A stretch of DNA of 64,000 bases from Rhododendron vialii (lineage: Eukaryota; Streptophyta; Magnoliopsida; Ericales; Ericaceae): positions 454,001-518,000 of the forward strand of contig NC_080569.1 of assembly GCF_030253575.1 (NCBI RefSeq), in the 5' to 3' direction. The translations under genes were made by a program, and so were the position numbers. This document shows positions 596-31,752 of the stretch, one piece after another (within the stretch, counting starts at the first letter, position 1; each line of letters begins with the position of its first letter). The notes under the pieces were generated by a model. The model did no database searches, had not been told where the DNA came from, and saw only the letters and a list, made by a program, of their open reading frames with translations.

Positions 596-765
596 GGTGG
601 TAAGGAGGAATTTGCGCTTGCAACATGGCAGAGTTCGATTTCCCCTACAGGCAAACTATGATTTAAGTGGCGAGTTATGGCTGTGAGTTGCAGTACTAGT
701 CTCCCCCGAAGATTTAGTCGAGGGACACGTAAGCTAGCCCGGATATTTCAGTTATAAAAAAAAAA
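596..765 (+). mobile_element. tRNA-derived SINE (old copy)
   Basis: The head holds a tRNA-like A-box region (ggtggtaagg, 596-605) and a B-box-like stretch (gagttcgatttcccc, near 631). A body follows containing 'gatttagtcgaggg' and 'gtaagctagcccggata', ending in a run of ten A residues at 756-765. I recognise this head, body and A-tail layout from plant tRNA-derived SINEs. No clear target-site duplication remains, so the copy is probably old. The exact 5' end is uncertain. Confidence 0.55.
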
Positions 766-1011
766 TCACTACCGGAGAAAAAGTAAATGAGATCTTCACT
801 GCATACTCTCTCAAATATGAACACTGTAATGTAAAATTGAGCGGACAATCCCGGCAAAACACGCAATCAATTAATAGAATGATCTAAGTCCAAAACAGGC
901 TAATGCACAACAAGTTTACCCCATTTGGATTTGGATGGAAATACATATACAGTAGTAAAAAAGCCATATTACTACAACGTATGTTAAGGTACGCACGTAA
1001 CGTACGTAGTT

Positions 1012-3023
1012 CTAGCATCTTTTAACAGTACTGTAAGCTACCCCGTCATTCCCTGCCAAGATCAAGTACTTGTCCTTCCTAGTAAGCCCAGTGCATTCAA
1101 ACCCCAGAGCCTTCCCAATCTCACTCTGTACGTAATTAGCCACATCAATCCTCGATTTCTCACTATTTGCACCACTGACCTTATCGAGGAACTGAATGGT
1201 GTAACTAGGGAAAGGGTTCATGAGGAAGAAAATGGGGTCCAAACACTTGAACCCGCTCGCAGTTGTCCCGTAAAACAAGCTCACCTTCACGTCCATCGCC
1301 ACGGGGACTATATCGTCGCTCAATTCTGCAAACAACGGGCTGAACCGTAACAAAAATGGCTCCCTACAAGTGGTCCCTTCGGGGCAAACAATCATGTCCC
1401 CTTGGTTCAACAACCTCTCCATCATCTCAGCATCTCGATTCCTGTCCCTTGTTAATCGGACAGTCTTGATGGGCGCTATGATCTCCGATACTCTACTCAG
1501 GCTGTATGTCGCGGCCGTGACGGGCTTCTTTAGACCGAAAGAGAAGTACAGTGGGTCCAACAAGGTCCTGTGGTTGCATACATATAGAAGGCCTTTGGGT
1601 TTAGAAACAGAGTACTGTAAGAAATAGGGATTTTTAACCTGGAGCCGGAGGCCGGTGAAGGCTAAGATTGGAATGAGCATGTTGTAGGGCAATGTTAAGC
1701 CAATAATGGCCCTGAAGAGGGCTAGGGAAAATCCAAATGGGACCCACATGAACATGGCAAGAGTGGCCAGTGGGGTCGGTCTGAATGCCAATCTGCCATC
1801 ATGGAAGATAAGGGGCTTGGGGTATTTCTCTGTGGGAAGATGATGCCAGTTCCTCCTGTCCGCCCCACTCACCAAGTAAATCTCCTGTTACGACAACCAC
1901 CACAATAATAAGGGACTGTTAACTTTTCTCTATCGATTCATATGCATACATTCAAAAAAAATATATATGACAAGTTAAATGCTTGGTGGGCTCTGGCCCC
2001 GAATCGTTTTGTTTGTTCTCGTTATCATAAAAATGCATTTTTTTTCTTGTTTCCCCTTGACTTGGAGTGACAACTGCAATTTTAAATTGTTAAAAGTGTA
2101 ATAATTCGCCAAATTATTAGATAGGGACAAACTATTAAAAGAACATACAATCACATGACATTATTGAAATCTCTTAACACATGAATTTAGAAATATAATC
2201 GTGTCGTTGTCAAGAAATATGATTGCGTTTTGTTGTCAAAATACTAAGTAGTTCAAACAGAAAAAATACAAATATTTGGAGATCGACCAATTATAATGTC
2301 GTGGTGTGAGAGTAGTCTTACCTTGCAGAGAGAGAACAATTGATGATCAAGAGATATGTTGAAGCTACTAATTCCAATGATTTTAGATGCTGTCTTGTCG
2401 TCTTCAAGCACCTCATCTAGAACAATCTTCTTCTTCTTCTCTTCCATCAACCCCACAAAGTAGCCAGAGCACACCTTCAGTTCCCTGCCAACTACAAAGT
2501 CAATCTCCATGTAATCCCTCAAAAAACTATCAACCATTACCCGAGGCAAATCGGTGACCCCAACTTTCTTCCCACCTCTTCTTACCACCTCAAAGCTTTC
2601 CAAACCAACATCCTCCAAAAAGAACTTGGGTAAAACAGCTGTTCCCGCTCTAAAGCTCTGTTCTTTGATCCCAAGAAAGCAAACCATGACCATGATTTTC
2701 AAACCCATCTCATGGCCAACAACACAAATAAATGGGTACAAAATGAAGAGAATAAGTGCCCTTAAGATGCTTCCAGCTTCAAAGGCTACTAACAGGAAGT
2801 AAGGAAAAAGAGATTGGGATTTCAAGAGAGATCCTTCGACGCTGAAGATCAAAGTGTGGTCCAACAGGTCTTCTTGTCTATGAGCAAGAGAAGGGTACTT
2901 GTGAAATTTGGATTGGGTTGTGGTGCTGTAGCTTCTGTGTAAGGTTTTTGGGTTTTTGAAATATTTGAGGAGGAGACGGGCGAAGAAGACAACAAGAGCT
3001 TTGAAGAAAAACGCATTCGACAT
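1012..3023 (-). CDS. GPAT3: Glycerol-3-phosphate acyltransferase, GPAT2/GPAT3 type (two exons)
   Basis: This gene transfers an acyl group to glycerol 3-phosphate in glycerolipid synthesis, probably at the ER or another endomembrane (family knowledge). Exon 1 is 3023-2322 (234 codons) and exon 2 is 1884-1012 (290 codons plus stop), giving 524 aa; the family is about 500-530. The intron runs from GTAAGA to CAG in phase 0. Exon 2 opens EIYLVSG, matching the homologous segment of Arabidopsis GPAT2. The acyltransferase block has NHRTLLD (residues 338-344, H-x4-D) and CPEGTTCREP (401-410). The N-terminal HAD-like half reads FSVEGSLL where phosphatase-active GPATs have DxDGT, so phosphatase activity is not expected. 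Hydrophobic segments lie near residues 8-22 and 80-120. I chose the second Met (MSNAFFFKAL) because it matches the family start; an upstream in-frame Met lies at 3059. GPAT2 and GPAT3 are close sisters, so the number is tentative. Confidence 0.9.
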
Positions 3024-3106
3024 TTTCTTAACCCACTTCTTTGTAATGGCTATGCGCACAGCAGTTGTTGACTTCTTGTGGTGTGTCCTCAGAAGAATAT
3101 GAAGTA

Positions 3107-3118
3107 CTCTATTTATGT
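3107..3118 (-). promoter_or_regulatory. TATA-like box of the GPAT gene
   Basis: Read on the minus strand this is CATAAATAGAG, about 90 bp upstream of the chosen GPAT start codon, a normal plant spacing. It is placed by sequence match only. Confidence 0.4.
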
Positions 3119-6100
3119 CAGTCCAATTAGGGAAATGTCCATCGACTTGCGTCTTTATTACGAACGTGGCACCTTGTTGACTATGCCAACTCTGTATTTT
3201 TTGTATTTTATCAGAGCCAATCAGCCAACTCTGTATTTTATCAGGGCATTGTTTTTTTCCTTTTTTTTTTTAATTTCTTCCTTCCCTTATGATCAAGTCA
3301 TGGGGTGTGTTGTGTGGACGCTTTCCATAAGCGTGTACGGTGGGACCCGATAGAAGGTAGAGTGAAATAAATGATCGAGTATCCACGTAGAAAAGTCAGA
3401 TAAGCATAAGAAATCTCTTTGGATTTCCACTCCTCTTTCTCTTATACTGAGCAGAGCTCAAATGTGGAAAGCCAGCGCATTTCAAGTTCAGAGTTGAGGG
3501 CTTTCAGTCGACAGCTCAAATATGTCAACGAAATAAAAGAATAACATATAAAACCAGGTGCCCTGCAAATTGGAGTAAAATGCAAGTTCCCTCTTGTTTT
3601 TTAGTACTCCAGTAGTTTCTCTATTACACTAGCTACTAGTTTTTAGTATTTTACTTCAACCAAGTTTGGACTATATTAATTCGATGAACTTTTTTTTTGG
3701 TTTTTCATTAAAATGATTAGGATTAACTATTCTTCTCGACGAGAGTGTTCAAAAAATTATAAAAATATGAACCAAAGTTCAGCAAATTTAGGGATAAAAA
3801 AAAACATAAAAATTCTTTTTTTTTTCCAGTCAACTTTTTTAGCTTTTGTTCATAACATTTTACTCTTTCAATTTATGTTGATAAGACAAATGATTAGTCT
3901 GAAAATTTTAACTCAAATCTAATCAATATTAGTAAAAAACAACTAACAAACAGAAATTTACCATAATTTAAGCTAGTCTATGTGGCTACAAGCTTATTTG
4001 GTTTTACCCCTTGACTTTCAAGGGGAAGGTCTGGGATTCGAGTCTATAGAGAGATATCGATCTCCCTTTAGTTGTTAACTCACTAATTTTCTGTTAACCT
4101 CACTGATGCATACAATATTGAAAAGCAATATTTATTTTTTGCTAGAGAAAAAGAAAGTGAAAGGCCAATTTTAAAGTTCTACAGGCTACAACTTGAGCCC
4201 ATGCAACCGACACACGCGTATAGCCCCAAACTGTTACCAGCTATTGCCCCATGAGACGGCTGCACATGGTCGTGTTGTTTAGGAAGGATCCAACATGTAA
4301 CGCGCTATATAGTAACTCAGTTTTTTTTTTTTTCCAAATCGTAGGAGTTGTATTGTATCAAATAACAGCCAAATACATCAAAGTTGGATATCGTTCCAAG
4401 ATGAGTAAATTAATAACCAAACAAGAGGCCTAACTATCCAAAATCACCCACTAGAGCCTCGCAACCAGGCTTTGCCAGCTAATCTGTTATAACTGACCTC
4501 CAAACAGAGAGAGTAACACAAACCCTCAACTACAACAAAGACAAGCAAAAGAACACCAGAAACCCCACACAGGCAAGGGAAAACTTTCATTAAAGGGAGA
4601 GAACCAAATCAACAAAACCCAAAATAAACGAAACCAAAAAGAGACACAAAAATAAATAAATAAAAACCTGGCCCAGGATGCTGTTGCCAGAAGCCGTCGC
4701 ACCGGATCCGTCAGCTTATTCGCCAGATGAGCAAAGCCAAGCCATCTCATCTTCAAATATTCACCAGATCGGCCCAAGCAAGGCCGGACAAGTAGACGAG
4801 GAAGGAGGCGAATGGTGGGGGGAGGGGGAGGATGGAGGCGGAGGGGAAGGGGAGGCAGAAGTGGAGCACGATAAGCCTAGGAGGTGAAAAAGAGGGAGGC
4901 CGGAGGAAGGGGCCGGGGAGGTGGAGGTGAGGAGTGCCGGCCAACATTGTTAAGCATTTAAGTAGACTATCAATTTGCAAACCAACAAATATAAATCAAG
5001 CAACATTACAGGGCGATGGTTGAGGCATAAAACAAAGATAAGTCTTTAATTATTTTCAAGTTATTTACAAGTGTAAATGGTATAATTACTGATTCTGTGA
5101 AATAATCACGGATGCAATCTTTAAAAGAAAGGTCGACAGAGATAGTGTAACGACTCGAGTCGTCAAGCACCGCAGCCCAAAACATAATTAAATTGATTGC
5201 TACACCCCGCGCCATTGGCCAACTCAATAAACAACAAATAACTAACGGAACACCAACACCCACTTCCTAAAGAAACTACATTATCTCTCGATACACCTTC
5301 CACGTACCCTTCTCTCTACAACCTTCCCCACTCTCGACCTCTCCTCCACAAACAGAAGCATTTTCCCCGTCTGCACCAAGAAGCATTTTCCCCGTCTGCA
5401 CCAAGAAGAGAGATATATATCAGCCTTTCCACCAAAAGTTTACAGCACAACTATCATTGTCTTTCCAAGCCTTCCACGTGCCCCTCCCATGCACAAGTAT
5501 ATCATCTCTTGTTATATATTTCAAATATTCCAAAGCTATTTTAACTTTCTCTACCCACTAGTTTTCTGTCTTTTGTTTCTTTTGTATGTTAACCAAAATC
5601 ACAAATGCATCCATTTTGCACACTACCATTAATTGATGCACACACACTCTAGTATCACGTGCATACCGCTCACAAAATAAACACGTATATCTTCCATGCA
5701 ATCCCTATATTGACTCAAATCCCCACAAATCTTTCAATTATATTAATCCCCATTATATTTTGTATTTGGTGTTAATTAGATATTTAAATGCTTAAGAATG
5801 CGTTTGTTTGGGGTCTCAAAACTCAATTTTCTCTCTCTGCTCATGGTCTCCCATAAGTTTTTTCTTCAATTATTAATCTTATTTGTCTTTCTATTTCTCT
5901 CCACTGATTATCCAAAAAATCTCCCTCAAAATCTAAACCAAACAAATTAACTATTAGATTTTCTAATCTTGAAATTTCAAAATCTTGTTCATAATCCAGC
6001 CCCCGTGTCTATGAAATCCTGGCTCCTTCCCTATGGATGTTTAAATTACGTACGTTGTGCTTAGTTTTAGAAATTTATGTGTAAATTAAGTATATGCGCA

Positions 6101-6721
6101 CTAATAAGCTTTTTAATTTTGACTAGTAATAATTGAAGTCCAATGAAGTTAATTAGTATTATCTTGTTGCTGTTGATTATAAAAATAAGCTCCCATGACC
6201 ATATATATATACATACTTAATGGTGCATGTGATCAGCTGCCACTCATGACTGTAATCCTCGATCCTAGCTAGCAACTAAAACTTTTATGGTTATTTTTTG
6301 CACTCTATAAGGTGTGACATGCACATGCATGTAGTGGACTCATAACGGATTTTATGTGAGTGATCGGAGTACTTAATTACTACTATTTTAAAGAAATTTT
6401 GTGAAGTGGAATATTAATATATACATGGTGCATGTCCATAGGCCAATCTAAACCCACAGATCGACGTACCAACCATAAACAGAAAACCAGTTAAAGGGAA
6501 TTAAATATAATAAAATAAAGAAAAGTGAATTTTACGATTAACGATCTTGCATTTTAATTTAGTCGTCTCATGAGAATTATATTTACTTTTAACATGCATG
6601 CATGAGCATGATGCATCGCTTGCGTGCAACCACCAGTATGGTCTCGCATCGCATGTCTTCCCTCAAAGTCAAAAATCCATTGTCGGCTGGCTCAACAGTT
6701 TGACCGCCCAAGTCTCTATAA
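3119..6721. other. Intergenic region, no gene; one G-rich block
   Basis: No convincing coding region. Around 3,975-4,130 a B-box-like phrase (ggattcgagtc) hints at a decayed SINE. Positions 4,796-4,935 are strikingly purine-rich, with G runs of 4 to 6 near 4,815-4,855. The stretch 5,806-6,040 is a dispersed repeat with a second direct copy at 13,517-13,755. The rest is AT-rich sequence with no structure I can name. Confidence 0.45.
5806..6040 (+). repeat. Dispersed repeat, copy 1 of 2
   Basis: Shares roughly 235 bp with 13,517-13,755 in the same orientation. Shared phrases include 'gggtctcaaaac', 'aagttttttcttcaattatt' and 'ttatccaaaaaa'. A pyrimidine-rich stretch of similar style occurs at about 50,540-50,760. 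It is probably a MITE-like or other non-coding repeat; no terminal repeat was resolved. Confidence 0.6.
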
Positions 6722-7130
6722 AATTGTATCCGGATGAGGTGGAAATCATGGCTTTTCCGCCTCCCATTGTGAGTCCCATTGTACATTTATTGCGGTAATC
6801 TGAGTCATTCATCTTATAGAGTTCGCAAAATTCATGTAAAAAATCAGATTTATCGAACAGTCATAGGTATATTAAAAATTAAATTCTGGTTTTCAAAACG
6901 GATGGTCATGCACATTTTAAATTAAAAACTATTGCAAGAATCCAGGCCGCCCATTTTATAAATCAAAATTCAATTTTTGATATACCTATCAATATCCGAT
7001 AAAGTTGATTTTTTGCGTGGACGCACGATTTTGCGAGCTCTACAAGATAAACGATTCAGATTACCCCAATAAACACACTACAAGGCCCACAAATGGCGGT
7101 GGGGAAACCCTGGCTCATCCGGACATAATT
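6722..7130. mobile_element. Fold-back (long inverted repeat) element, old
   Basis: The two halves are imperfect reverse complements over almost the full length. The left arm begins aattgtatccggatgag and the right arm ends ctcatccggacataatt. Inside, 'cggtaatctgagtcattcatctt' on the left pairs with the complement of 'aagataaacgattcagattacc' on the right. Many mismatches mark it as older than the hairpins at 15.0 and 16.3 kb. It encodes no protein. Non-autonomous MITE/fold-back class. Confidence 0.75.
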
Positions 7131-7286
7131 CATTCTCGAAACAATAAGGTTTGACCCATGCACCGTTAGTTGCTTATGTACGTACATGCCAACGTGTCTG
7201 TGATTGAACACTCACTTGGAGAAGAAGCAACAATAGTGAAGAAATAAATGATGGCCGGTTACATGGTTATTAGGCTCACCCATCTT

Positions 7287-7655
7287 AAGCTATGACTTCT
7301 AGCTGTGTAAGAAAAGTAGTACCGACCGCGCGCCCTTCTTTGTTAGGCTCACCTATCTTAACTATGATTATTACTCTATGAGAAAAATTTTATTATGGCT
7401 GTTTCGGTAAATAGTTATTTACGGAGATGAATCGTGTGCATCCATTTTGGCTTTGGACGGTCCGAATTTAAATTAAAAAAATTATGAAAAACGAACAGTC
7501 AAGATCGCATGACTCTGTGAATAATGAAATCACGAAGCCTGAATAAGTCAAATCTCTTACTCTATATTTTTTTTGCCAATCATTAAAATAAAAATAAAAA
7601 ATGGCGGCCGGTATTACTTTTCTTACACAGAAGTCTGTAGTTGGAGTCCTTAATT
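7287..7655. mobile_element. Probable short TIR/MITE remnant
   Basis: A 30-40 bp arm near 7,290-7,330 (containing ctgtgtaagaaaagtagtac) recurs inverted near 7,608-7,645 (ggtattacttttcttacacag). The interior has no coding potential. Family unknown; ends approximate. Confidence 0.5.
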
Positions 7656-8940
7656 AAGAGTAAAACTTTGTTTGGGCCTGCCTCCCTCCCGTAAGTGAAA
7701 ACTTATGCAATTAGAGGGATCCGTTCTGAGTTATAAGCAAAAAATACGTAACAATGAGGCGGATGATCCGTTCAGATTTCAATTTTCAAATTGCCAAGGA
7801 TTCAATGGGATGCAAATTATATATGGTGGTGCAGGAAAGGAAGCACCACACCACACATGACAGGATGACACTACTCACGCCAGCATAACCCATGCAATAC
7901 AGCTAGCAAAAATGAAAAAGGCAAAGGTAGAATAGTAGGTCGGTCCTATAGGAAGGACCATGGACAGTAAAAGTAAATTATGCCGATGGAATGTTGTATC
8001 AACCACCCACAATTAGGAAACACTACGTATGTACTCTCCCCCCCAACTACTATACCAATTAAGGTTTCTATCTCTATTAATATATGTAAATTAAACCTAA
8101 TTTATGGGATCATTGAAGAGGTACTCTTAGGTACGTACTGATGGGCTAATGGATCGACCAAAGGTTGAGCCACCTCCACCGTAATAGAAATGCAAATTGA
8201 CCAGCCAACCAATTTGGCTCTATGCGTAGATCGAATTAGCCAACGCTTGTTCAAATTATAGCTAGACAAGATGGTCTTAGGTGATAGGCTAAAGATTGAG
8301 CCACCTCCACCATAATAGAAATGCAAATTACCCAACCAACCAATTAACTTCTCTAGCTAGCACCCAACGTAACGCTCGTTCAAATTAGCTAGACAAAGAG
8401 ATATATAACTGGGCTAGACATTGGATATATCATATAGACAATTAATCTATTCTAATATGGAAACTGAGGCAATAGCCCAATGTGATGTCAAGCCGTGTTA
8501 TAGAAATAATTTTTCGGGATTGCCAAAAAGAAAATAAGTTTTTGTGATTACTTTTGATTTGGTGGGAAATACTACTAGTTGTTATGAAAAAAATCAGGGT
8601 CAAAGGTATATATATGGGTGGGGGGGCCGGGCCACCCCTACCTTACTAGAACTATCCTATACATTATATAAAATACAATGGCACCATGTGAATTCCAGGT
8701 TCCAAGTTTCTAATTAAACAAAATAGTAATCAGTAATTAAGAATGGGAAGAAAAAAATGTCATATCAATGGCACAAAATGCAGGTCGGGGTGGGAAAATA
8801 TAGGCTTCTCTTGCGTTACGGGGTATGCATACTGCGGGATTAAATGGATCAGTAGTGATCATCCTCAAATTCTACAAATACAAGTAATTAATAGCTAGAG
8901 GTACTAAATTAATCAACCCTAGCTACTTTTAGATTTTGCA
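7656..8940. other. Intergenic region with a local tandem duplication
   Basis: No gene seen. Positions 8,145-8,275 and 8,276-8,400 are two diverged copies of a unit of about 120-130 bp; both contain 'gccacctccacc', 'atagaaatgcaaatt' and 'gttcaaatta'. The rest is AT-rich and unremarkable. Confidence 0.5.
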
Positions 8941-9784
8941 TACTACAATATTGTTAAAAGATAACGCTTGAAAAAGTAAAAAGATGTCAATTTTTGAAAA
9001 AACCGTAATTTAAAATATTGCAATAGGTAAATAATGTCAGTCATCCAAAAAACTGTGATATACTGTAATATATTTATGATGTCACTTTTTAAAAAACTAA
9101 CATAACTATTATTTCTTTTTAATGTCAGTTTATCCTAAAGTGTGATATAATATATTTATGATGTCACTTTCTAAAAAACTGACATAATTATTCTTTTATT
9201 TTAATGTCAGTTTCTTATAAGTGATATTGAAAAACAAAAATTTATTTTTTGGAGGAGACGGCGCCGTATGCGCAGTGTGCGGTACCTCAACCTAATTAAT
9301 CCCGCCCAAATTAATAACTCAATCTAATTAATCCCGCCCAAAATAAACCCGGATGAAACCTCTTCGCATCCACTCTCTCTCTCTCTCTCTCGACAATCTG
9401 GTACTAGCTTGCTCGCACTCTCAGCCTCCTTATCAGAACAGATCATGTTACTTCCACAAGGCAAGGCCGATATCTTTCGTAGTAGTCAAGGAGGCATTTG
9501 ACATCGTGTGGTGGTGGTGGAAGCTGTGATATTTGCCGTTGATTGATCTTGGTCACCAGCCACTGGCTCCGCCATTGCTTTGGTCACCGATTGACTCGAA
9601 ATCAAACAGGTATACAGACCCCGCCTTTGTTTAGACAGTTAACACAACTTTTTGTCTAATTTTTTCATTGTTGAATTTATGGGTGCTATTTACATGGTTT
9701 AAAATTTGTTTTAGTGTTGATTGAGTTGCTCGCATTATAGGTGTTTGATAATATGCTCATGTCAATCTATGTCTCTCTTTTTTT

Positions 9785-9900
9785 TCGCGCGGTAACTAGT
9801 AAAATTAGGATGGGGCTAGGATTTGAACCCGAGTTCCCCAAATCCTTTGTACATATATAGCCAAACCACGTCAAGCCACGAGTCATTTTGTAGTTCTTCC
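9785..9900 (-). mobile_element. Possible tRNA-derived SINE fragment
   Basis: On the minus strand an A-box-like TGGCTTGACGTGG is followed by a B-box GGTTCAAATCC, the spacing of a Pol III promoter. It lies inside the CACTA-like element. Tail and ends were not resolved. Confidence 0.35.
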
Positions 9901-10514
9901 AATCGAACGAAACGGAACATAAGTTATCGATTCGATTGCTTTATTTAATTAATGTGTTCCTGTTTTGTTAATCTGAATTCGTTTGTTAAAGAAACAAGGC
10001 AGTGAATGTTAGGGCTATTATTCAAGTTTTGATTTCGGATGAGTTGAAGCTATTAGCACAGTTACAAGCACATAGCCTTGTTGGCGTCGTATCCGTTCCG
10101 TCAGTTAGTTTTTTAGAACTCGATGGATCTACCCTCAAATATGAAATGAAGAGATTTGTTGAGATGAATGATTCTTAAGTGGTTGCTTTATGGATTATGT
10201 GCCCAATAAGATAGGATATTGAGAAGGTTGTAGTTCATGAAAAGTTAGAAGGATTTAGAAATGTGGTGGAACTTAATGAATAGTAATACTGTAATACTAG
10301 ATGTTCATAACTGTAGAACAAGCCAAGCTTAATATAGATGAGTTCTCCTATGCTGAAATTCGCTGTGTTCAATTCACTGAGTTGGAGAGTTGGTCTGGAG
10401 CTCACTATTAACTCACTTAACTGAACGTTAACGAACATTTACCTAGCCAAGCCTTGTCTTGAATCTATGCTCTTTACAATCATATAGGTGATAGCTATTG
10501 TTTGCCTATAACAG

Positions 10515-11164
10515 GAGATATCAGACAGCTTTAGCAATATGGAGTTTTTGTATGTTAATCAAGGGGTTATAGCCTCAGAAACCACCGATGGTTCAACCTC
10601 TTTTCGCAAGTCTACTCAGTGGCAGGAGGAGCAATGGTGGCTGCCTGTGCCTCGGTCTCGCCCGACGATCTCCTTGAAGATACACGAAAGCAGTTGAATC
10701 ACAATCGCGAATGTGCAACTCAAATACTAAAAGCTGCCATGTCCATCAACAACATAGCTTTAGCTGAAATGGAAGTTCCTGAATCATACTTGGAAGCTCT
10801 TCCAAAGGTTTGTAATTCCAACCTAACACTAGTATCAAGGAATGTCGCCAAAGAAGCCCTAATTTCCTTTCATATGCTAAGTTAGCAATAAAGAACAACA
10901 CATTTTTTTCCCACTCAGTTCAAGTGTTTTTTGAAGCCATGTACTTATCATTGTTTGGCACCTAAACTTGTTTAGGTTTTACTATTCGAAGTATCACTAG
11001 GCAATTGAGATCTAACATTGGCTTTTTTGTTTCCCTCCTGATTATTATCTCAGAATGGGAGAGCCTGTTTAGGAGATGTTATTTACCGGTACATCACTTC
11101 AAACCATGTTTTACCATTCAGTGTGTGTGTTCCACTGATTGGTGCCGACACCTCTCTCCACTAG
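10515..11164 (+). pseudogene. Captured fragment of a RopGEF (PRONE-domain) gene
   Basis: RopGEFs activate plant ROP GTPases through the PRONE domain. Exon-like segment 10515-10807 reads [18 protein letters not shown], then [12 protein letters not shown]. After one frameshift it reads ARKQ-like [17 protein letters not shown] and AAMSINNIALAEMEVPESYL, ending ALPK. A GT...AG intron (10808-11053) follows, then NGRACLGDVIYRYITSN from 11054. These match consecutive PRONE stretches in family order, and the intact intron argues for DNA-level capture rather than retroposition. The frame is lost again near 11,090, where residues only faintly resemble the next PRONE stretch. The fragment sits inside the CACTA-like element. 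No full RopGEF gene lies in the window, so the donor is elsewhere. It is not expected to make a working GEF. Confidence 0.8.
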
Positions 11165-13516
11165 GTATGAATATATCTGCAAATACATTTGCTAAACCCT
11201 GAATTGCTCAATCTCAAAAAATTAATCTATCTCTGGGCTTTGGGAAAAAATGAGCAGTGGCGCTAGAGCTTCAATGGAAGCAATTTTTGAAAGTCAATTC
11301 TGAACATATTAGGGGCAATCTTCTCATGCTAAGGTATCATTATCTACATGTTTCATTTTTTATGTTCAGCCCTTTGAATATATGTACTCTTTACTTCCCT
11401 TTTTGACTTTGGTTTGCTTGGATACACTTAACTGCAGTAAAACTCGACAAAAGTGACAATTATTGAGAAACAACTATCTTAACCTTCTTTTGGTTCAAAA
11501 CTAACCCTATGATCTGCAAAATGAGAGTATGCATGAGTACAAATGAAATATCTAAACCTTGTCTTTGTTAAAATCAATATCTCTCTTCATTTATGCAAAT
11601 TCATATGCATCTCTCTTGTAAGTTGTGAGTTAATCATATTCTTTTCTACTTGTATAGGTACAACGTGCATGGTAAGATACATAGTTTAGAGGTTGGCCAA
11701 GGTACAAAGTCCATCTTTCTAGTTTATTTCTTATCAATTCAGCTAAGGTGCACTTACCTTTGCATCCTAACGGGATTGATGGCATCATGTTGTATATCTT
11801 GATTGTTGTCTTGGTGACATGAGTTTAGTCATGTGTTTTCTCCTTTGTTGTTGCTTTAGTTTATTTTCTCTTTTATGTTCATGGCGCATGTTTGCTCTCT
11901 CCTTGGGGTTGTCTGGTTTGATTTTCGATGCATGTCAGTACATTAAACATTTTTTGTTTTTGGCCTAGGTGATCCATTTCTCTTGAGCAACAGTGAGGTA
12001 TCCTAAGGTATTTTTTCTCATTTTGATACATTCATGTTTAATTTGTACGTGCTTTGGATATACCATCAACAGAACCTAACACGAAAGTGAACTTTGAGAA
12101 TTAGACTAATTTGCCTTCTTTTTTTCTAAGTGTAGTGTAATGATGTTTGTATATGTGGAATTTGAGAGAAATAATATGATAATTTATTTTTGCTTTCTTC
12201 CTATTATGTTTATTGCAGGACATATATGCCGAGCAATGCAAACTTTTGGGTTGAAGAAAGCTGGAATAAGTGAATAGTTATAGGGGGTCATTTATTTGTA
12301 TTTTGTACTTTTCGGGTTGAAATGATACTTGATCACCTTACGTACTATAGCATATTTTTAATTTTTTAGTTATCAATGTATACCTTTTTATTCATTAGTG
12401 GATGCTTTTATCTTTTTAAATGTTTTTAATGATTTTGAGCAGGAACTAGAATTGTGATTTTTTTTTTTAGGAAAAAAGACAAAAAAGATGACAGTTTTAA
12501 ACTGTCATCTTTTACTTTTTAATTACGCTTTAAAAATGTCATCTTTTTGAAACATGAAGGTTTTAAAGCACTTTAATGACATTTTACAACTGTTATCTTC
12601 TACTTTCAATTACATTTAAAATGCGTCATCTTTATAGATACTAATGACAGTTTCAAACCGTCATTTTAAGATTCAAACTTTTAATGTCAGCTCTATAGAT
12701 GACAGTTTTGATAGATGACAGTTTCAAAACTGTCATCTTTCACGTTAATGACACTTTTAAACTGTCATCTTTTACGATTATTGTAGTAGTTCATTGTCAT
12801 AATCAGCTAGTGCTCCACTCTGGCCAGAACAATCCAAAGGATTTAGCTAGGATTGGTAGAGTACTGTTCCAGCCTCCTCGCTAGTATATATACGTAGGAA
12901 ACAGTCACACAAACAAGCAAAATCTGAAAGTAGTAGTAGAAATATCACAATTAATGAATGGTTAATTAGGACATGAGCTGAGAGACTAGAAACCGACGAC
13001 CTTATTTTTTTAGACATGCAGATCATCTGTTCTCAAAATTAATTAATGATGTATTGTGTATCAGTAGTGTATATGTATTAATTAATTAATTATGGAGCGG
13101 TGACTTATAACTTCAAAGAAGTAACTTAACGTGTTAGTGTATTAATTAATTTATGAAGGATGGGCTTGCATGTTAATTAATTAAGGTTCTATCATGGGGT
13201 TGATCGAGATGTCAAACCGTTTGAATTGCCACAATACTAGCTAGCTACACGATGGATGAACCTGCTTGCTGTACATGTCCAAGGAATATCATGACAAGCT
13301 AGTTTTTTTTTTGTTTTTTTTGCTAATGAAAAAGGTGGGCTACATTGATTGAACCAGTACTGTAGACAGAGACGGAACTACTCTTAGCTAAGCGTACGAG
13401 ATTTCGATATTAATATCAATTGTTTTTTTTTTTTTTGTTGTTAAGAGCATCTGGATATTGTACGTATTTTTTGTTGGGTGTTATATATTTAGATAATTAA
13501 TTAAAAGCGTTAAGGG

Positions 13517-13755
13517 GGGTGTTTGTTTTGGGTCTCAAAACCCTACCCATCTCTCTGCGCACAGTCTCTTATAAGTTTTTTCTTCAATTATTAATCTCAT
13601 TTCTCTTTTTATCTCTTTTCACTCATTATCCAAAAAACCTCCCTCAAAAGTCAAAACCCAAACCAAATAAACTATAGAGATTCCGGATCTTGAATTTCAA
13701 AACCTTGTTGTTATAATTCGGCTCCCGTATTTACGAAATTCTGATTCCATCCATG
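13517..13755 (+). repeat. Dispersed repeat, copy 2 of 2
   Basis: Direct-orientation relative of 5,806-6,040, with shared blocks in the same order and scattered substitutions. Non-coding. Confidence 0.6.
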
Positions 13756-14446
13756 AGTGTAGAGACCGCCCCGGATCAACTAGCTAGGGCTGGAATATTG
13801 ACAAGCTAGTATCTCCATATATAAAATTTCAATATTCATGAATATGGAGTACGTCGTCCTGACATTATTAACAATTAATGGTGGGGTATTTGGCCTGTTG
13901 CCCGGCCTGCTATCCATAAACAATTGGTTGTCAAGGCCCATCAGTAAGTGCTTCCTTAATTATTTTCGTTTTCTTCATTCAATTTAGCAATCAGTTAAGA
14001 GTGCATGTACTCCTATATATTATTAATTACAGGTATATTAATTATGGACATTCTTAATTTAAAGTTACGTACGCAATCAATCATCTAATATAATAGTAAT
14101 TAAGAAAGCCAACAAAAGCGAGCGTGTCCCGCCACAAGTGCTAGCTAGCTAGCTACAATCACATGAACGTTGAGAGAAGAAAAGAATCTTGTGGTAGCTA
14201 GCTAGTTACTTTCACAACTTACAATTTAGTGAAATTTTGTCAAAGTAAAGCTCGATCTGTTGTTTCGACGTCCTTTTTCGTTTTTTGGACAAAGAGTGCG
14301 TTAAATGTAGTGAAATATCTTCGTCGTCATATGACCAAAAATGATTTTGTCTAAAATTCACTAGTGTAAGCTAGGCATTTTGGGTACCTTCCAAAACCCC
14401 CAAACTTCTCGATCGACTCATTGAGAGGTTATTATCTCTCTGTACA

Positions 14447-14456
<10 letters not shown>

Positions 14457-14512
<56 letters not shown>
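14457..14512 (+). repeat. (GA)n microsatellite
   Basis: About 28 uninterrupted GA units following a short (GT)n run. Open frames across it on both strands are artefacts of the dinucleotide repeat. Confidence 0.95.
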
Positions 14513-14514
<2 letters not shown>

Positions 14515-15002
14515 CGTGCATGACCATCTCCTGCACCTGCAGACTACTACGGGTTTTGTGATCAGCCATATCACCTTCTCTTTCGATCGTAATCCCTCTT
14601 GCATGCATGCTTTGACCTGTCCATCAACTATGTGCATCTAAAGTATATTTTTGAACAACTATTTCGTGCGAAAATCGTTCTACGTGATCAACAATTTTCT
14701 ATGTCAAATACTTTACGTCGAAGCAAGAGAACGAATTTTGTGTGCGGAAGTTATTTGGCACAGAAATTTAAAAAAAAAAAAATGACTGGAGACTTATTAT
14801 TCAGGAAAATAGTTGATGGTAGCTTTCACAGAATTAGAAGATATATACGGAATTCTGAGTTGAACACATGTCGTAATTTTGGGAAGTAAAAATTTTAATT
14901 TCCAAAAATTTCTCTAATCGCCTTGTTTAATCCAGAAGTTCCATTGAAATATGCAGGAACTGTCCATTATGCATGCAAGAGGTGTAATAAGTTAAAAGTA
15001 AG

Positions 15003-15322
15003 AGCTGTGCACAACGGCCTTTTTCTTCCGCCTCGGGTCGCGCAAAGATGATCGGAGCAACTTATTTTGTTCAAAATATGTCGTTTAAAGTCTCTGTAAA
15101 AAATGAGTTTCGTTCGATATCGTTAGAAGCATTAACAAAACACCCAAAATCACTTTAGCCTAAATTCTGAAGTGATTTTGGGTGTTTTGTTAACGCCTCT
15201 AACGATATCGAACAAAGCTCATTTTTTACCGAGACCTTAAACAACATATTTTGAACAAAATGAGCGGCTCTGATCATCTTTGCGCGACCCGAGGCGGGAG
15301 AAAAAGGCCGCTGTGCACAGCT
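15003..15322. mobile_element. Near-perfect fold-back hairpin element
   Basis: The 320-bp segment is almost entirely one inverted repeat. The left arm starts agctgtgcacaacggcc and the right arm ends ggccgctgtgcacagct; arms of about 150 bp flank a short loop near 15,155-15,165. Arm identity is high, so it is young or recently homogenised. Non-coding. A transcript through it would form a long hairpin. Confidence 0.85.
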
Positions 15323-16154
15323 GCTGTGCACGAATCATTTCTGTAAAAGTAATTAACTGTAGATTGTTCTACATACATGCATATTGAAGCGTCTTTTTGT
15401 CCAGTTTGAAAGACAAGCTAGATTAATTTTTTGCTTGAATGATTTAGTCAGAAGGCCACTCAATTGAATATCATCCAATTCGTAAAGTACTTTTATCATG
15501 AATTCGTCCAAATTTTCATGCAGAATTCGCAATCTAGAAATTTGGACTAAAATTTGAACGAAAGGATCGAGTATTTATCAATATATATATCCAATTGAGC
15601 TGATTTTAACTTGAATGCTCGATAGATCGACTCTATACGAAATCCAAACTATGTAGGAAAAAGTGTTAATATGTTGATCAACGACTCTTATAAGCTCATG
15701 AGTGCGTAGGGTTCCATATATGGGAACATTAACCAAATGCATGCATGCTAGAGAAGTACTAAAAGGGGAGCTCTATACCTAAATATGCAAACGTAATTGC
15801 CATCTTAGCTACAAAAATATATGTATGCATGTGAATAATGTCACAAGCGAGTGATCGAAGAACTAAAAGAAGAACAAACCTATGCACGCAAATTAATGCA
15901 CGTCTTTAATTACTAATTTTGATTTTAGCCTAGCTAGCTAGCTAAGGCATGCACTCTGCAAAAGCCACTGCCCGCCATCACAATGTCTATATAAACATGC
16001 ATTGGGTGGCTCTCATGAAAACCAATTGGAGTAATTAATTAGCTCCATTCTCCCAATTCGATTAATTCTCTCCTAAACTTCCCATATAGTACGTACGTAC
16101 GTACTTCCCCATTCATCAAACAATATGGCTACAGAGAAATTGGCCAACGTACTC
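15323..16154. other. Intergenic region, nothing recognised
   Basis: AT-rich with many GCTAGCTA, ATGCATGC and ACGTACGT palindromic runs. No gene or defined element seen. Confidence 0.4.
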
Positions 16155-17430
16155 TTAGGCCACGCTTCTAACACAAAACCGGATCGAGGAGGAATCGGAA
16201 CTCCTTTCTAACAGGAGTACGTTCCATAATCAAACAGTAAGGAGCTAGGATAATCAAGTTAATCTTCTTATATACATGCAGCTATATATATATATAGAGT
16301 CCGTCTCCCGTAAGGACCACCTCATTTTAATAAAATGCGGACCTCCCTTTCCCGATTGAATTTCGATGATCCGAGCCGCTCAATGTGTTCAGAACGTGAT
16401 TTTAAGGGTACCCGCGAGAAATCAGCAAAAAAAATGACCGGGAAGGGCTTCATCCGAGCAGTTTTTGTTTGTTTTTTATCGAACGGTTCAAACAAAAACT
16501 GCTCGGATGAAGCCCTTCCCGGTCATTTTTTTTGCCAATTTCTCTTTGGTACCCTTAAAATCACGTTCTGAACACATTGAGCGGCTCGGATCATCGAAAT
16601 TCGATCGGAAAATGGAAGAAACGAGGAGGTCCGCATTTTAACTAAAATAAGGTGGTCCTTACGGGAGACGGACTGTATATATATATATATATATGAATTA
16701 TTTATTTCATTTTCGGTTTTATATATTGTGGATGCAATCAGTAACTAGATGAGTTGATCGTATCATAACAACTTATTCTTCTTCTTTGTTTTTCTTTTAT
16801 CATCAATGTCATGGGTTTTTTTTTTTTTTTTTAAATCTCATTTATCCTAATACAACAACCAGAAAATGAATATGACAATTATCGAGCTCTATGAGGGCAC
16901 ATTTACTCGTTACAAAAATGAATATATGAGTTAGACTAAAGTTTTGAAAGCAAATAAAGTATACTATAATACATATAACTCTGTCAATACTAGCCGTTAT
17001 GGCGCATTCCGAGAATTTTGGTAAGGTTTTTGAGAGAGAACAAAATAGAAAAACAAGTTTTCAAAACTATAATCGTTATATCTTCCGATAACTCCGACAT
17101 TTTTCAAAAAAAAATTAGGTATAAATTCCTACTCGAGATGTCAGTAAGGAAAAGAATGCTTTTTGTGCATGACTGTCAAACAATTGGATCCATTTTTACC
17201 GATCGAGACCTTCTTCTTTTTTGTGTCTTAATCCATTAATTTCTATGAGAAATAGTGAAGAAACGCCTAAAACAAAAGAAAAATCGTGTGATTATTTGTC
17301 TAGCTATCTGGGCTTTCACAGAAAGAAATACGAATAGAAAATTGCTAACCTTCTAATTAAATTAGGTTAACTCCTGTTAGCGATGAGTTCTGAGCTTCAG
17401 TTGTTGTGTTAGAAAGCATGGCCTAAAGGT
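16155..17430. mobile_element. TIR DNA element, non-autonomous, with a nested hairpin
   Basis: Left end 16,155-16,222 (ttaggccacgcttctaacac ... ctaacaggagt) and right end 17,362-17,430 are inverted copies over about 65-70 bp; the right end reversed reads ttaggccatgctttctaaca. The interior has no transposase, only AT-rich sequence plus a nested hairpin at 16,298-16,674. The flanks gtactctt and ggtatctt could be a degraded 8-bp duplication, which would suggest a hAT-type element, but this is not secure. Confidence 0.6.
16298..16674. mobile_element. Fold-back hairpin element in a (TA)n site, nested
   Basis: A 377-bp long inverted repeat. The left arm starts agtccgtctcccgtaaggac and the right arm ends gtccttacgggagacggact, with nearly identical arms of about 170 bp. 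It is flanked on both sides by TATATA runs, consistent with insertion at TA or at a microsatellite. It interrupts the TIR element 16,155-17,430 and is therefore younger. It shares the phrase 'gatgatc.gagc' with the 15.0-kb hairpin. Confidence 0.85.
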
Positions 17431-18160
17431 ATCTTGGCCATCTCCTCTCTCTCTCTCTCTACAGCCATTGTTTTAATTCGAGTTACTCATGGTTTTTGGA
17501 ACTGGTCCTTTACGGCGATGAACTAATACTATTAGCAGCCATTTAAAATCGAAAAAGCGTTAATTCTCTTCTTCATCAATAGGAGATCGAGAGAGTGGAG
17601 TTTGTCAGGAGAAAAAAAATAAAGAAATAGAGCTGGCTATGGGGCGGAGGCATTCCATACCATCTGCAGATCGAAATACACTGGTTTCTGCTGTACGTGG
17701 GGTGGTGCCAGTTTCCTAAATGCAACAAATTCTAATGGCTAAACAGATTCTGTTTTACAAAATAGAAACACAGTTTACGTAACCAAGTTATTTTGACTTG
17801 TAAGGTACCTAAGTTCCCAAATTCTTGTTTGAATCCAGATTCGAAGTACTTTGTACTTCTACATTACACCACGTTTTACAAAATTCTATTATGTACGTTG
17901 TACATTTACTATACACACCCCTTGTACTGTTTTGCACTTATTTTTTTTCTGTTCCTATTAAAATGCTCTATTATCGCAAAGAAAAAACAATAAAATCTAA
18001 TCTTTGTTTCTGACAAAAGCCAAAAAATTTCTATCTAATGAATGGATGGCTGATGAACTTCCATTTCAAGTATTTGACCTTTTTCCTGGCTTAAGAAGAC
18101 TGATCCCAAAAGTCGTGACTGTTTTTCTAACTTGATGTTGTCCATAGCAAACTAGTAGTT
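17431..18160. other. Intergenic region upstream of the PME copy
   Basis: No gene recognised. It contains a short (CT)n run near 17,447 and otherwise AT-rich DNA. Short open frames at 17,793-18,013 have no recognisable similarity. Confidence 0.4.
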
Positions 18161-18283
18161 ATGGTTCCTTTCGTGATTTCCTCTGTTTTGTCTTTGTGTG
18201 TCTTTGTTTTGCTTGTGGTCTGTAGCAGCAGCCATACTCCTATACTCAGGTTTTATGTACTCCGGTTCTCCAAAGCAGAGTAA
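18161..18283 (+). other. Candidate signal-peptide first exon of the PME copy
   Basis: A 40-codon frame starts MVPFVISSVLSLCVFVLLVV, a textbook secretory signal (polar start and a hydrophobic core of about 15 residues), then CSSSHTP. Pectinesterases are secreted, and the next PME exon lies about 200 bp downstream on the same strand. No splice donor joining the two is obvious. Treat it as a candidate only. Confidence 0.3.
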
Positions 18284-18473
18284 TAATCCTGAGTCACTTT
18301 TAAAGCAAATTTCGCTAGTCTCAGCTCCAGCAAGGAAATAAGGTTTATTTAAAACAAGACATCCCCAGAAAACAACAGTAACTAAGCTAGGTTTGGAGGA
18401 TGATCCGAAAATGCCTCCACCACGCCTTGTAATACCCTGACATCTACTAAAAGTAATATACATTCTTGACAGG

Positions 18474-20044
18474 TGGCACACAAAGCTGTTTGCAACCCTC
18501 ATGTTGAGGACGTTTTGCTCGAGTGCGCAAAGCCAGGTCATGGACATAGATGTTACTGTAGCCAAAGATGGGTCAGGGAACTTCTCGACCATTCAAGAGG
18601 CAATCGAACATGCTCCAAGCTTCAGTCCACGGAGATACAAAATACAGATCGGTGAGGGTCTCTACGGGGAGTACATAGTAGTGTCTAAAAAGAAGACAAA
18701 TCTTATGCTGGTTGGAGCCGGGATGGACAAGACTATCATATCAGGCAACAGAACCACTGCTATTGGACCCTACGAACATACTTATCAAACAGCAACAGCA
18801 GGTCAGTTACTGCATTATTAGGAGAAGCAAATCAATTGTTTGATACAATTGAAGTCTGGATAGACACAATTTACAGTTAGCAGTTGTGCATGAAATCCAT
18901 AAAGCAATAGCCGACTGTTTTGGACATTAATTTAATAGAACCAGCTCTAAAAGAATTAAGCAGACATCCAATTTAAATGGTTTGATTTTATGGTAAGTGG
19001 TAACAAAGTTGGGTTATTGAACAAAAACAAAAAAAAATGTTGCACCTTAAAACATCAGAAAATTATATTTTTACAACAGTTATGGACACTCTTCTCCGTA
19101 AATGAAATATGAAACAAAAATTGTAAGCATATGGCATGTCATAAAATGCATGTACTGACATTGAAATTAGGACAGAAAATGAGTTTTCTCAATTGAATGA
19201 AATTCACACCAACGCATGCATGCACACACAATCTTGCCTGTCCTTGGGATACATAAACAAAGTAAATATATGCTGAAGCAAGTCTAAGATAGTGTTGAAA
19301 TTCATACTACTACGCTAGTCACTAAGATACTTATTAATCTCTTCCTCATCAACAGCAATAGAAGGTCAAGGATTTGTCGGCTTGCATATCACTGTTGCAA
19401 ATGCAGCTGGAAAGCAATATCCCCAGGCTGTGGCATTAAGAATTGATGCAAACTACTCGGCCTTCTACAATTGTCGATTCCGAGGGAATGAAGACACTCT
19501 TTTCACTAGACAAGGGTACCAATTTTACAGGGAGTGCGAAATCTAAGGCACTGTAGATTTCATTTTTGGAGATTCAACTGTAGTACTCCAAAACTGTTTC
19601 ATCTACCCACTCCAGCCTCTTGTGCAGAAAAAGAATACAATAACGGCCCACAAGAGAGAGCAGCCATACGAACAAACTGGTATAATCATTCATAACTGGA
19701 CAATAAGAGCTGCACAGGAACTACTTCAGCAGGATTCAAAGTTTACGACCTTTTTGGGAAGGCCATGGGGGAATATGTCAAGAACAATCATAATGCAAAG
19801 TTTTCTTGATGATCTGATCAACCCCAAGGGTTGGCTGGAGTGGGAAAGCCCACCCCACAGTGTCGATAAAGTGGACTATGCTGAGTTTAAAAATCGAGGG
19901 CCAGGAGCCAATACAGCAGGTAGGGTGCATTGGTCAAGAGTGATCAATAGCTCCAGTGAAGCAACCAAGTATACTGTCAAAAATTTTATCAAGGGGGACA
20001 AATGGATTCCTGCAGAAATTCCATATTTTCCGGGCTTAATGTAA
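18474..20044 (+). pseudogene. Pectinesterase, copy A (catalytic domain, broken)
   Basis: Pectinesterases remove methyl esters from cell-wall homogalacturonan. Exon 18474-18801 encodes DVTVAKDGSGNFSTIQEAIE and SKKKTNLMLVGAGMDKTIIS. Exon 19356-20044 encodes AIEGQGFVGLHITVANAAG, QAVALRI, GNEDTLF, DFIFG and LGRPW, ending YFPGLM. The intervening intron is GT...AG in phase 1. One in-frame TAA interrupts exon 2 just before GTVDFIFG, where a Ser or Thr codon is normal. The usual GYQDTL reads GNEDTL, so a transition-state Gln is Glu. No fused N-terminal inhibitor domain was found. This is the most complete PME copy in the window and the only one with its 5' exon. A sequence error at the stop is possible, but the substituted Gln also suggests decay. 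Confidence 0.8.
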
Positions 20045-22298
20045 ATTCGTGTTGTATCTTTTCAATGAATAACACAGCAACTGGATGCAGGGAATTACAC
20101 TTTCCTAGTATTTCATTATACACAGTTCCAACAAGTAAAATCAATGGGGTTTATACTTTAATAATATTTTTTTTTTGAAAAGGGGTTTATAATTGAATAC
20201 AGTACTTGGAAAACCAATCCACTTATGGGTGACGTTATGGAATTTTGATGGATATTTACAGAGGTACAAGTATAAGAATGGGATTTATAATTGTAAAATC
20301 AAAAGAACAAAATACTTGGAAACCAAACCACCTGTGAAACAGAAAAATCAAATGATGAGGGGTGAGGCCAAGATTTCGTCCTGGTGGAAGTAACAATCCA
20401 CTAGAAAGTTGGAACACAACCAGAACCCATAGTAAGTGACTGAAAAAAAAAAAAACTACTGCATATAACTATATCAAGAGAGGGAATACTCTATGCTAAC
20501 ATGAAATCATACGTACTATTCTTTGATAGTTCTTTTCTAATAGCACATCTATAGTTCATGGAAAAACTATGTTTGGTTATGCCCTACAAATGCTCTCGAG
20601 TCTTAACCAGACCCAGTTATCTAGCAAGCATTTTGAAAAGAAGCCCATATCTCCTAAACCAGAGCAGACTACGGCAAAAAACCAAAAGAATGCAGCTATG
20701 AAGAAAAGGTTCAGCAGTCTCCAGCCAATCCCCTCCCTCTTTTATAAGTCCAGGGTTAAATGAAATAGATGGGGTGGATGACTCAAATGCAAGTCGACGA
20801 AAAAGATGTGGCAGATGACTAAAATACAAGTGACTATCGACAAAACTTTAATCTATGCATTCGGAGAGAACATTTCAGATATTTCACAAAAAGTATTCTG
20901 AAGATAACAGGAGGTTGAGAAGTTCCAAAGCGAGAGGAGGGTGATGTTTTTCAAAAAGAAAACTAGAATTTAACAACCTGCACCACCCAAATAATATATC
21001 GACTCTAACGCAATGCATGAGCTCATACTTGCATTGAATTATAGTATATCGTATGTACAATGCTTTATGTTAGTAACTGCTTCTCATCGTATGATATGTT
21101 GACTATAGAAACCTAGATCATATAGAAAGTGCCATTTTTCATTCGAATGCGCCTTTTTCTTGGCCACAAACCCATCTTTGATTGAGCAACTCAAAAATGT
21201 TATCCTTTTCTTTTGAGAGGTCACAAGCTTCTCTCTTCAAACTATTTGTCCAAAGTTATGATGTCATTGCTCCTTAAATATTGGGTGTCTAAGGAGTGGA
21301 TGAAAAATGGACTTGGTTGAAAGCTTATATTTCAAGTTTAGGAACAGAGACATGTCCTAGCATCCTATTGAGAATGGGACGTAAAGGGAAAGGAAAGGTA
21401 GGTTGTTTCTATTGCCATATCACCCTGTTGTATCGCAAATTACACACGGCCATAAAGATCATTTTTTCTATCTAAGATGTGCATCTCTTTCTCTAAACAG
21501 GCCTGGGAATTCCCTTCATCAACCAAAAATTACACTTCTTTCTCCCTAAAAGTGTGAAGCACTCTTTTCGGGGACAGATGAAAGACATTCAACTAATACC
21601 TTAAAAACAATACAGCACGCCATTATATGGATTTCAATTGCAGGAATAGGTAATCAAGTGCTAATTGCAATTCTGCTGTACCTTCTTTTGCCACCCTAAA
21701 CCGTAAACGTAAAGGATATGAAATTATGAGAGGGGAATAAATAGAAGCACAATTTTAAGGTTCAATGGACAACCTCTATCATTTGAAAGAGAGGCCGTCG
21801 CACAGCATTGTAGCACCAATATGAATTGTGACATTAGCAGCACCCAATGTAGATATAGAAATAGATAGACGGTGCTAAGGAGATCTGCGAATTGGTGCAT
21901 GTTAAGCAAAATATAACAAATGACAATTATGTGGAAATCTACATGCCATTTTTACTTTTGCCAAGGAGAAATACAACTTAGTGCAATTTAAGCAAAATTG
22001 ACACTATAATACGTGTAAGTTGTAATGAGCGGGTGAGATAGGGATTTGTCTCATATTTTGGTAAATTTCTTGATGCTTCTGCATTCAAATACTTGATCGA
22101 AATGGCTAGAGAGTTGTCAGCCAATTCCCACGCAGTATGAAATCATGAGCCAGAAACATGATCATAAGGAGCTATATATCATGGGGTTCAGAGTTATGAG
22201 GGAAGAACAATGGGTAATAGAAAAATGGTATGATTCATTTATTTATTGAATGTTGTAAAGGAGGAAGGAAAATGGATAACAGAGACTCAGAGAGAGTC
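20045..22298. other. Unit A spacer of the PME/PMEI array
   Basis: No gene. This spacer is repeated at about 27,042-29,276 (unit B) and, from 20,681 onward, at 30,468-34,549 (unit C, interrupted). Conserved landmarks include 'gatatgttgactatagaaac' and 'gggacgtaaagggaaag'. Confidence 0.7.
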
Positions 22299-22826: not shown

Positions 22827-22841
22827 TCCTTTACAAGGCAA

Positions 22842-24836: not shown

Positions 24837-24841
24837 CATTA

Positions 24842-26015: not shown

Positions 26016-26020
26016 CATTA

Positions 26021-31704: not shown

Positions 31705-31752
31705 AAATAATATATCGACTCTAGCGCAATGCACGAGCTCATACTTACATGC

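What the first reader, a model, noticed from the sequence alone, without database searches (positions are those of the whole stretch)
8941..12788. A CACTA-like element has captured part of a RopGEF PRONE-domain gene, introns included
Seen: matching TIRs with an ACTACAA core, dense palindromic subterminal repeats at both ends, and inside them two consecutive PRONE-domain exons separated by a GT-AG intron. Known: plant TIR elements can carry host gene fragments (Pack-type or transduplication), more often described for MULEs. Inference: a non-autonomous family that may spread fragments of a ROP-signalling regulator and could produce small RNAs against the donor gene.
Basis: partly seen in the sequence, partly recalled or inferred. 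Interest (0 to 1): 0.75.

Follow-up and report, generated by a model that had tools for sequence, protein, structure and literature searches.

The report
Transposon-like element carrying broken RopGEF fragment
A 3.8-kb piece of plant DNA with transposon-like ends carries a broken middle part of a signalling gene (RopGEF), a kind of gene-fragment capture already well known in plants.

Summary
8,941-12,788 is bounded by imperfect inverted repeats (outer 10 of 10 bases and 21 of 26 match), with AT-rich ends that hold all 10 TGWCAGTTT copies of the window. Inside, 10,515-10,807 and 11,054 to about 11,104 encode consecutive parts of the RopGEF PRONE domain across a GT-AG intron (joined: Pfam E = 3e-38, profile positions 118-228 of 361). 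No PRONE match was found in 111 flanking plus-strand ORFs. The coding part is frameshifted and lacks both ends of the domain, so it should not make a working exchange factor.

Best reading: a non-autonomous, Pack-type, CACTA-like element with a captured host gene fragment. Two defining CACTA features were tested and not met: the ends read TACTA, not CACTA, and no 3-bp target duplication is seen. I therefore call it CACTA-like, not a member. Copies, donor, small RNAs and expression could not be tested, as no genome is held. Such captures are described in soybean, morning glory, Arabidopsis, rice and maize. Interest is low.

The parts
8941..8974 (+). left terminal inverted repeat, begins TACTACAATA
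   Evidence: 27 of 34 complementary to the right end, outer 10 of 10
8975..9240 (.). left subterminal repeat region (8,941-9,240 is 21% G+C), ATGTCAGTTT-type motifs
9241..9608 (+). G+C-richer block (47%), resembles a 5' untranslated exon with a CT run; origin unknown
   Evidence: composition; the exon reading is inference
9609..10514 (+). interior without a recognised protein; its right part is probably RopGEF intron, up to an acceptor AG at 10,513-10,514
   Evidence: acceptor 1.82 bits by recalled weights; inference
10515..10807 (+). RopGEF PRONE exon fragment, reading frame shifted inside the exon
   Evidence: PF03759 positions 118-159 and 156-208 in two frames
10808..11053 (+). GT-AG intron between the two PRONE exons
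   Evidence: the adjoining profile positions meet across it
11054..11104 (+). start of the next PRONE exon; homology stops near 11,104 (right end approximate)
   Evidence: profile positions 206-229, then nothing
11105..12480 (.). interior of unknown origin; no credible protein family match
   Evidence: exon-chain control gives no support
12481..12754 (.). right subterminal repeat region, palindromic ATGACAGTTT-type motifs
12755..12788 (-). right terminal inverted repeat, ends ATTGTAGTA

Best explanation
A non-autonomous, Pack-type cut-and-paste DNA transposon, CACTA-like in its ends, that carries a genomic fragment of a host RopGEF gene (part of the PRONE domain, one complete intron). Shown: paired ends, repeat-dense subterminal regions, no recognisable transposase in the interior, two PRONE exons and their intron, a frameshift, and no further PRONE match in the flanks scanned. 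Inferred: it was moved here by a transposase supplied by another element that binds the subterminal motifs and ends; genomic DNA rather than a copied mRNA was captured, because the intron is kept; the cargo is a non-functional passenger.
For: Inverted ends. All 10 TGWCAGTTT copies of the window lie in the two roughly 300-bp ends. Left end against reversed right end scores 37, above all 200 mononucleotide shuffles (maximum 35), and inside the terminal repeats still 35, reached by 1 of 200; the margins are thin. PRONE E = 3e-38 joined; RopGEF8 is the only solved-structure relative at E up to 0.001 (E = 5.1e-21). Intron kept. No PRONE match in 111 flanking plus-strand ORFs of at least 36 aa, nor in the 149 longest of 204 other ORFs of at least 62 aa. 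No transposase match among 56 plus-strand ORFs (at least 22 aa) and 15 minus-strand ORFs (at least 40 aa) of the element. Precedents of the same anatomy: Tgm-Express1, Tpn1, LsC1, Pack-TYPE.
Against: No full target-site match over 3, 4, 5, 8 or 9 bp at any of three boundary choices; best partial matches 3 of 5 and 5 of 9. Termini TACTA, not CACTA. No second copy in the window. The two ends prefer different motif versions. The left TGTCAGTTT count alone is within chance (10 of 100 shuffles).
Confidence: 0.78

Rival explanations
1. Two separate transposon ends happen to flank a RopGEF relic that was already here (an in-place pseudogene or older duplication), so the segment never moved as a unit.
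For: No target duplication at the outer ends; left and right subterminal motifs differ: ATGTCA 7 left and 3 right, ATGACA 0 left and 10 right.
Against: Outer 10 bases identical and 21 of 26 match; both ends carry TGWCAGTTT, found nowhere else in the window; the ends align slightly better than shuffles even inside the terminal repeats; no further PRONE match in the flanks; asymmetric subterminal repeats are reported for a soybean CACTA element (PMC2613891).
Confidence: 0.13
2. The element belongs to another superfamily, with ends CTACAA...TTGTAG and a TA target duplication (Tc1/mariner-like).
For: A TA sits on both sides if the ends are set at 8,943 and 12,786.
Against: TA is its own reverse complement, so this cannot be told from two more bases of inverted repeat. 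Plant mariner ends are, as I recall, CTCCCTCC-like. Dense subterminal repeats are described for CACTA elements.
Confidence: 0.06
3. A live chimeric gene: the PRONE exons are spliced to the upstream block and to downstream exons and make a protein.
For: A block that looks like a 5' untranslated exon at 9,241-9,608; a possible chain of three further GT-AG introns downstream.
Against: The frame shifts within the PRONE exon; PRONE positions 1-117 and 230-361 are missing; the downstream stretch scores no better than shuffles (66 of 100 reach it, a coarse control) and the chain has no credible family match.
Confidence: 0.03

Closest known systems
Tgm-Express1, soybean CACTA element in the wp allele (PMC1947982; abstract and discussion seen)
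   Same: Between CACTA-type ends it carries host gene fragments with introns kept (five fragments in 5.7 kb).
   Different: Proven insertion, known fragments and chimeric transcripts. Here one fragment is identified, the ends read TACTA and no target duplication is seen.
Tpn1 family, Ipomoea nil (PMC5105172; passages seen)
   Same: Terminal and subterminal repeats kept, interior replaced by host gene regions; most copies lack transposase.
   Different: 339 copies, with 3-bp target duplications (one 5-bp; fourteen with a mismatch). Here a single copy is known and no duplication is seen.
LsC1, lettuce (PMC8195511; passages seen)
   Same: 3,913-nt non-autonomous CACTA element with 28-nt imperfect ends and no transposase; similar size.
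   Different: ACC target duplication and reported activity.
Pack-CACTA / Pack-TYPE elements (PMC8903248, passages and section 10 seen; review PMC13317346, passages and section 7 seen)
   Same: Coding DNA between transposon ends, without transposase.
   Different: Those were called by given terminal sequences plus a target duplication, in clusters of several copies.

Membership tests
CACTA (En/Spm) superfamily | termini CACTA...TAGTG | tested here: not met
   ends read TACTA...TAGTA
CACTA (En/Spm) superfamily | 3-bp target-site duplication (one paper, PMC8903248, gives 5 nt for rice and maize) | tested here: not met
   3 bp: GCA/GTT, CAT/AGT, ATA/TAG at three boundary choices; 5 bp: at best 3 of 5
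CACTA (En/Spm) superfamily | short terminal inverted repeats | tested here: met
   21 of 26, outer 10 identical
CACTA (En/Spm) superfamily | subterminal direct and inverted repeats at both ends | tested here: met
   weaker at the left end
CACTA (En/Spm) superfamily | CACTA-type transposase, in this element or a related one | not testable with these tools
   no match among 71 ORFs of the element, as expected of a non-autonomous copy; no genome held to look for a partner
Pack-TYPE element | host coding sequence between terminal inverted repeats, no transposase | tested here: met
   PRONE exons; no transposase match
Pack-TYPE element | donor gene elsewhere in the genome | not testable with these tools
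   no genome held
Pack-TYPE element | target-site duplication | tested here: not met
Functional RopGEF gene | complete open PRONE domain | tested here: not met
   positions 118-229 of 361 only, in two frames; no more in the flanks scanned
Tc1/mariner | TA target duplication | tested here: inconclusive
   TA on both sides at 8,943/12,786, indistinguishable from two more bases of inverted repeat

The most novel reading that the evidence does not exclude
This is a hybrid element at or near its birthplace. The left end comes from one element and the right end from a neighbour with a slightly different motif (ATGTCA against ATGACA), fused by aberrant excision around captured DNA, as proposed for Arabidopsis Pack-CACTA (review PMC13317346). 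That would explain both the missing target duplication and the unlike ends, and would give a fossil of the capture step itself.
Probability: 0.08. Interest if true: 0.5.

Novelty: new member of a known kind. Interest (0 to 1): 0.2.

Why it matters
It is one more example of a host gene fragment, intron included, lying between transposon-like ends in a plant. If the family is multi-copy it could seed small RNAs against RopGEF genes or new chimeric exons; neither was tested. The missing target duplication together with unlike ends is the only unusual point, and it bears on how such captures arise.

Tried and rejected
A second captured gene downstream: I chained four exons by eye (11,258-11,333; 11,658-11,701; 11,969-11,997; 12,219-12,254), open in one frame for 60 codons. 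Pfam and NCBIfam gave no family, and solved structures gave one match at E = 0.66. In a control with splice weights recalled by me, two of the chain's four acceptors fell below the threshold, the region's best score was a single exon, and 66 of 100 shuffles reached that score. The control is coarse: the probable PRONE acceptor at 10,515 (1.82 bits) would also have fallen below its threshold of 2. I do not count the chain as evidence.

Rest of a RopGEF gene in the flanks: none among 111 plus-strand ORFs of at least 36 aa in 1-8,940 and 12,789-20,000 (E up to 0.1). Shorter coding exons would be missed. Minus-strand ORFs there, and both strands beyond, were scanned only for the 149 longest of 204 (68 aa or more, E up to 0.001).

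Relatives in public collections: a 63-aa PRONE piece in viral contigs and in bacterial and archaeal genome contigs, and the end pattern in viral contigs, gave nothing. These collections are not of plant genomes and the patterns were strict, so this says little. The tRNA and Rfam scans were empty.

Literature: RopGEF with CACTA, Pack-MULE or Pack-TYPE: 40 of 60 papers listed; of those shown only PMC6078310 (by title a rice DNA polymorphism, methylome and transcriptome study, not read) held RopGEF. RopGEF with transposon or gene capture: 20 of 300 listed, none of those shown held RopGEF. TACTA or TAGTA with 'CACTA superfamily': 4 papers, none about transposons by title. TACTACAA: 20 of 773 listed, none about transposons by title. 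RopGEF exon structure: one paper searched, no exon positions in the passages (PMC7057574). I saw no report of a captured RopGEF and no plant family with TACTA ends, but do not claim that none is in print.

Full report
The sequence itself. The window is 64,000 bases at 38.5% G+C and looks like flowering-plant nuclear DNA: Pfam finds a RAM2-like glycerol-3-phosphate acyltransferase, pectinesterase, pectinesterase inhibitor and Copia-type retrotransposon proteins. No whole genome is held for it, so everything below rests on one copy.

Ends. 8941-8974 and 12755-12788 are inverted repeats, 27 of 34 complementary; the outer 10 bases are identical and 21 of the first 26 match. A 25-base pattern drawn from both ends occurs twice in the window, only there, allowing three mismatches, and 0 of 100 shuffles reach that. 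Cautions: the pattern was drawn from the hits. With a looser rule ([CT]ACTA, at least 11 of 13 bases, 300-15,000 bp apart) this pair is one of 20 in the window. A scan for 21 of 26 with a perfect outer 9 gave 655 overlapping hits. I saw the first 80: this pair, microsatellite pairs (most rows), one foldback at 30,821-31,675 and one further pair (28,540/36,107).

Subterminal regions. The ends are AT-rich (21% and 27% G+C against 35-37% in the near flanks). TGACAGTTT occurs 7 times in the window, all in 12,489-12,767 (shuffle mean 1.01; 0 of 100 reach 7). TGTCAGTTT occurs 3 times, all in 9,123-9,213 (10 of 100 shuffles reach 3). Together all 10 copies of TGWCAGTTT lie in the two ends. TGTCATCTTT with up to one mismatch occurs 16 times, 9 of them in the ends (1 of 100 shuffles reaches 16). 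The ends prefer different versions: ATGTCA 7 left and 3 right, ATGACA 0 left and 10 right. The copies are not independent, since part of the left end is a duplication. Aligned as inverted repeats, the ends score 37 (200 mononucleotide shuffles, maximum 35); inside the terminal repeats they still score 35, reached by 1 of 200. So they look weakly related beyond the terminal repeat, by thin margins. Asymmetric subterminal repeats are described for the soybean CACTA element Tgmt* (PMC2613891, passages), and in Tpn1 the subterminal repeats were used to tell orientation (PMC5105172, passages), so asymmetry alone is ordinary.

No target duplication. At boundaries TACTACAA, ACTACAA and CTACAA the flanks give no full match over 3, 4, 5, 8 or 9 bp; the best partial matches are 3 of 5 and 5 of 9. 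Only TA matches, at the last choice, and TA is its own reverse complement. CACTA elements are described as having CACTA/TAGTG termini and a 3-bp duplication (PMC4158355, passages); PMC8903248 gives 5 nt for rice and maize (passages). The terminus and the duplication were tested and not met, so this is CACTA-like, not a member. Loss by mutation in an old copy is possible; that is inference.

Cargo. Pfam PRONE matches three reading pieces: positions 118-159 (within 10,512-10,694), 156-208 (within 10,619-10,807) and 206-229 (within 11,042-11,161; E = 0.0026, below the curated cut-off on its own). Joined they give 132 bits, E = 3e-38, positions 118-228 of 361. The only solved relative at E up to 0.001 is RopGEF8 (2ntx, E = 5.1e-21). 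The first two pieces are in different frames, so the exon is frameshifted. The intron 10,808-11,053 is GT-AG and lies where the profile positions of the two exons meet. Homology ends near 11,104, without a GT donor that I could see there; I read this as a break inside an exon. The fragment lacks positions 1-117 and 230-361. A retained intron means genomic DNA was captured, not a processed transcript (inference).

Is it part of a gene here? Of 112 ORFs scanned (111 flanking plus-strand ORFs of at least 36 aa and one control), only the control matched PRONE at E up to 0.1. Of 56 plus-strand ORFs in the element (at least 22 aa) 3, presumably the known pieces, matched PRONE; four other families matched one ORF each, weakly (best E = 0.0077), and none is a transposase. 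Fifteen minus-strand ORFs (at least 40 aa) gave two weak unrelated matches. Elsewhere I scanned the 149 longest of 204 ORFs of at least 62 aa at E up to 0.001: no PRONE and no CACTA transposase; the mobile-element families found there are Copia-type.

The rest of the interior. 9,241-9,608 is G+C-richer with a CT run and looks like a 5' untranslated exon; this is only an impression. For 11,105-12,480 I first saw a four-exon chain, but a coarse control gave it no support (66 of 100 shuffles reach the region's best score), and it has no credible relatives in three libraries. Its origin is unknown.

How it most likely works. A transposase of the CACTA type supplied by another element would bind the repeated motifs and the ends and move the unit; the RopGEF piece is a passenger. 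That the unit ever moved is not shown, because the target duplication is missing. Capture may follow the model reported for Arabidopsis Pack-CACTA, in which neighbouring elements suffer complementary terminal deletions and form a hybrid enclosing chromosomal DNA (review PMC13317346, section 7; the original paper was not held). Silencing of donor genes through small RNAs is reported in maize for captures by Helitrons, Pack-MULEs and Sireviruses (same review, passages) and is untested here.

Comparison. Soybean Tgm-Express1 carries five host gene fragments in 5.7 kb, spliced as exons (PMC1947982, abstract and discussion). Morning-glory Tpn1 elements have captured host sequences in place of the interior. 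Lettuce LsC1 is 3,913 nt with 28-nt imperfect ends and no transposase, and that paper says the middle regions of non-autonomous CACTA elements typically carry host gene fragments (PMC8195511, passages). Captured fragments are also reported in Chenopodium CACTA elements (PMC8978399, passages). In maize, Pack-CACTA elements hold the most distinct loci of the Pack-TYPE groups (PMC8903248, section 10). The find is therefore a new example of a known kind. What remains odd is the combination of a non-canonical terminus, no target duplication and unlike ends.

Noticed in passing
19433-37534: Large repeated segments (many pairs 87-90% alike, up to 2.5 kb) with three pectinesterase-inhibitor ORFs (by their sequence probably 22302-22877, 29280-29720 and 34553-34972) and pectinesterase ORFs near 18.4-20.0 kb: an expanded local gene cluster.
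   Followed up: partly
57993-62483: Copia-type retrotransposon on the minus strand with 143-bp direct repeats at its ends, 97.9% identical; GTCTT lies one base before the left repeat and directly after the right one. Short LTRs, probably a young insertion (inference).
   Followed up: partly
15003-15322, 16283-16689 and 40362-40684: Long palindromes, each about 320-410 bp and 82-89% self-complementary, foldback or MITE-like.
   Followed up: partly
5802-6021 and 13521-13743: A dispersed repeat of about 220 bp, 81% alike, in the same orientation on either side of the element.
   Followed up: partly
8923-8939 and 12917-12933: A 17-bp inverted repeat, 94% complementary, whose left arm ends next to the element's left end; probably chance.
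   Followed up: no
9807-9850: The sequence ggatttgaacccg resembles a reversed tRNA B box (motif recalled), so a SINE-like scrap may lie inside the element; the Rfam scan was empty at the curated threshold.
   Followed up: no
44696-44865: 85-bp tandem duplication, two copies about 97% alike.
   Followed up: no
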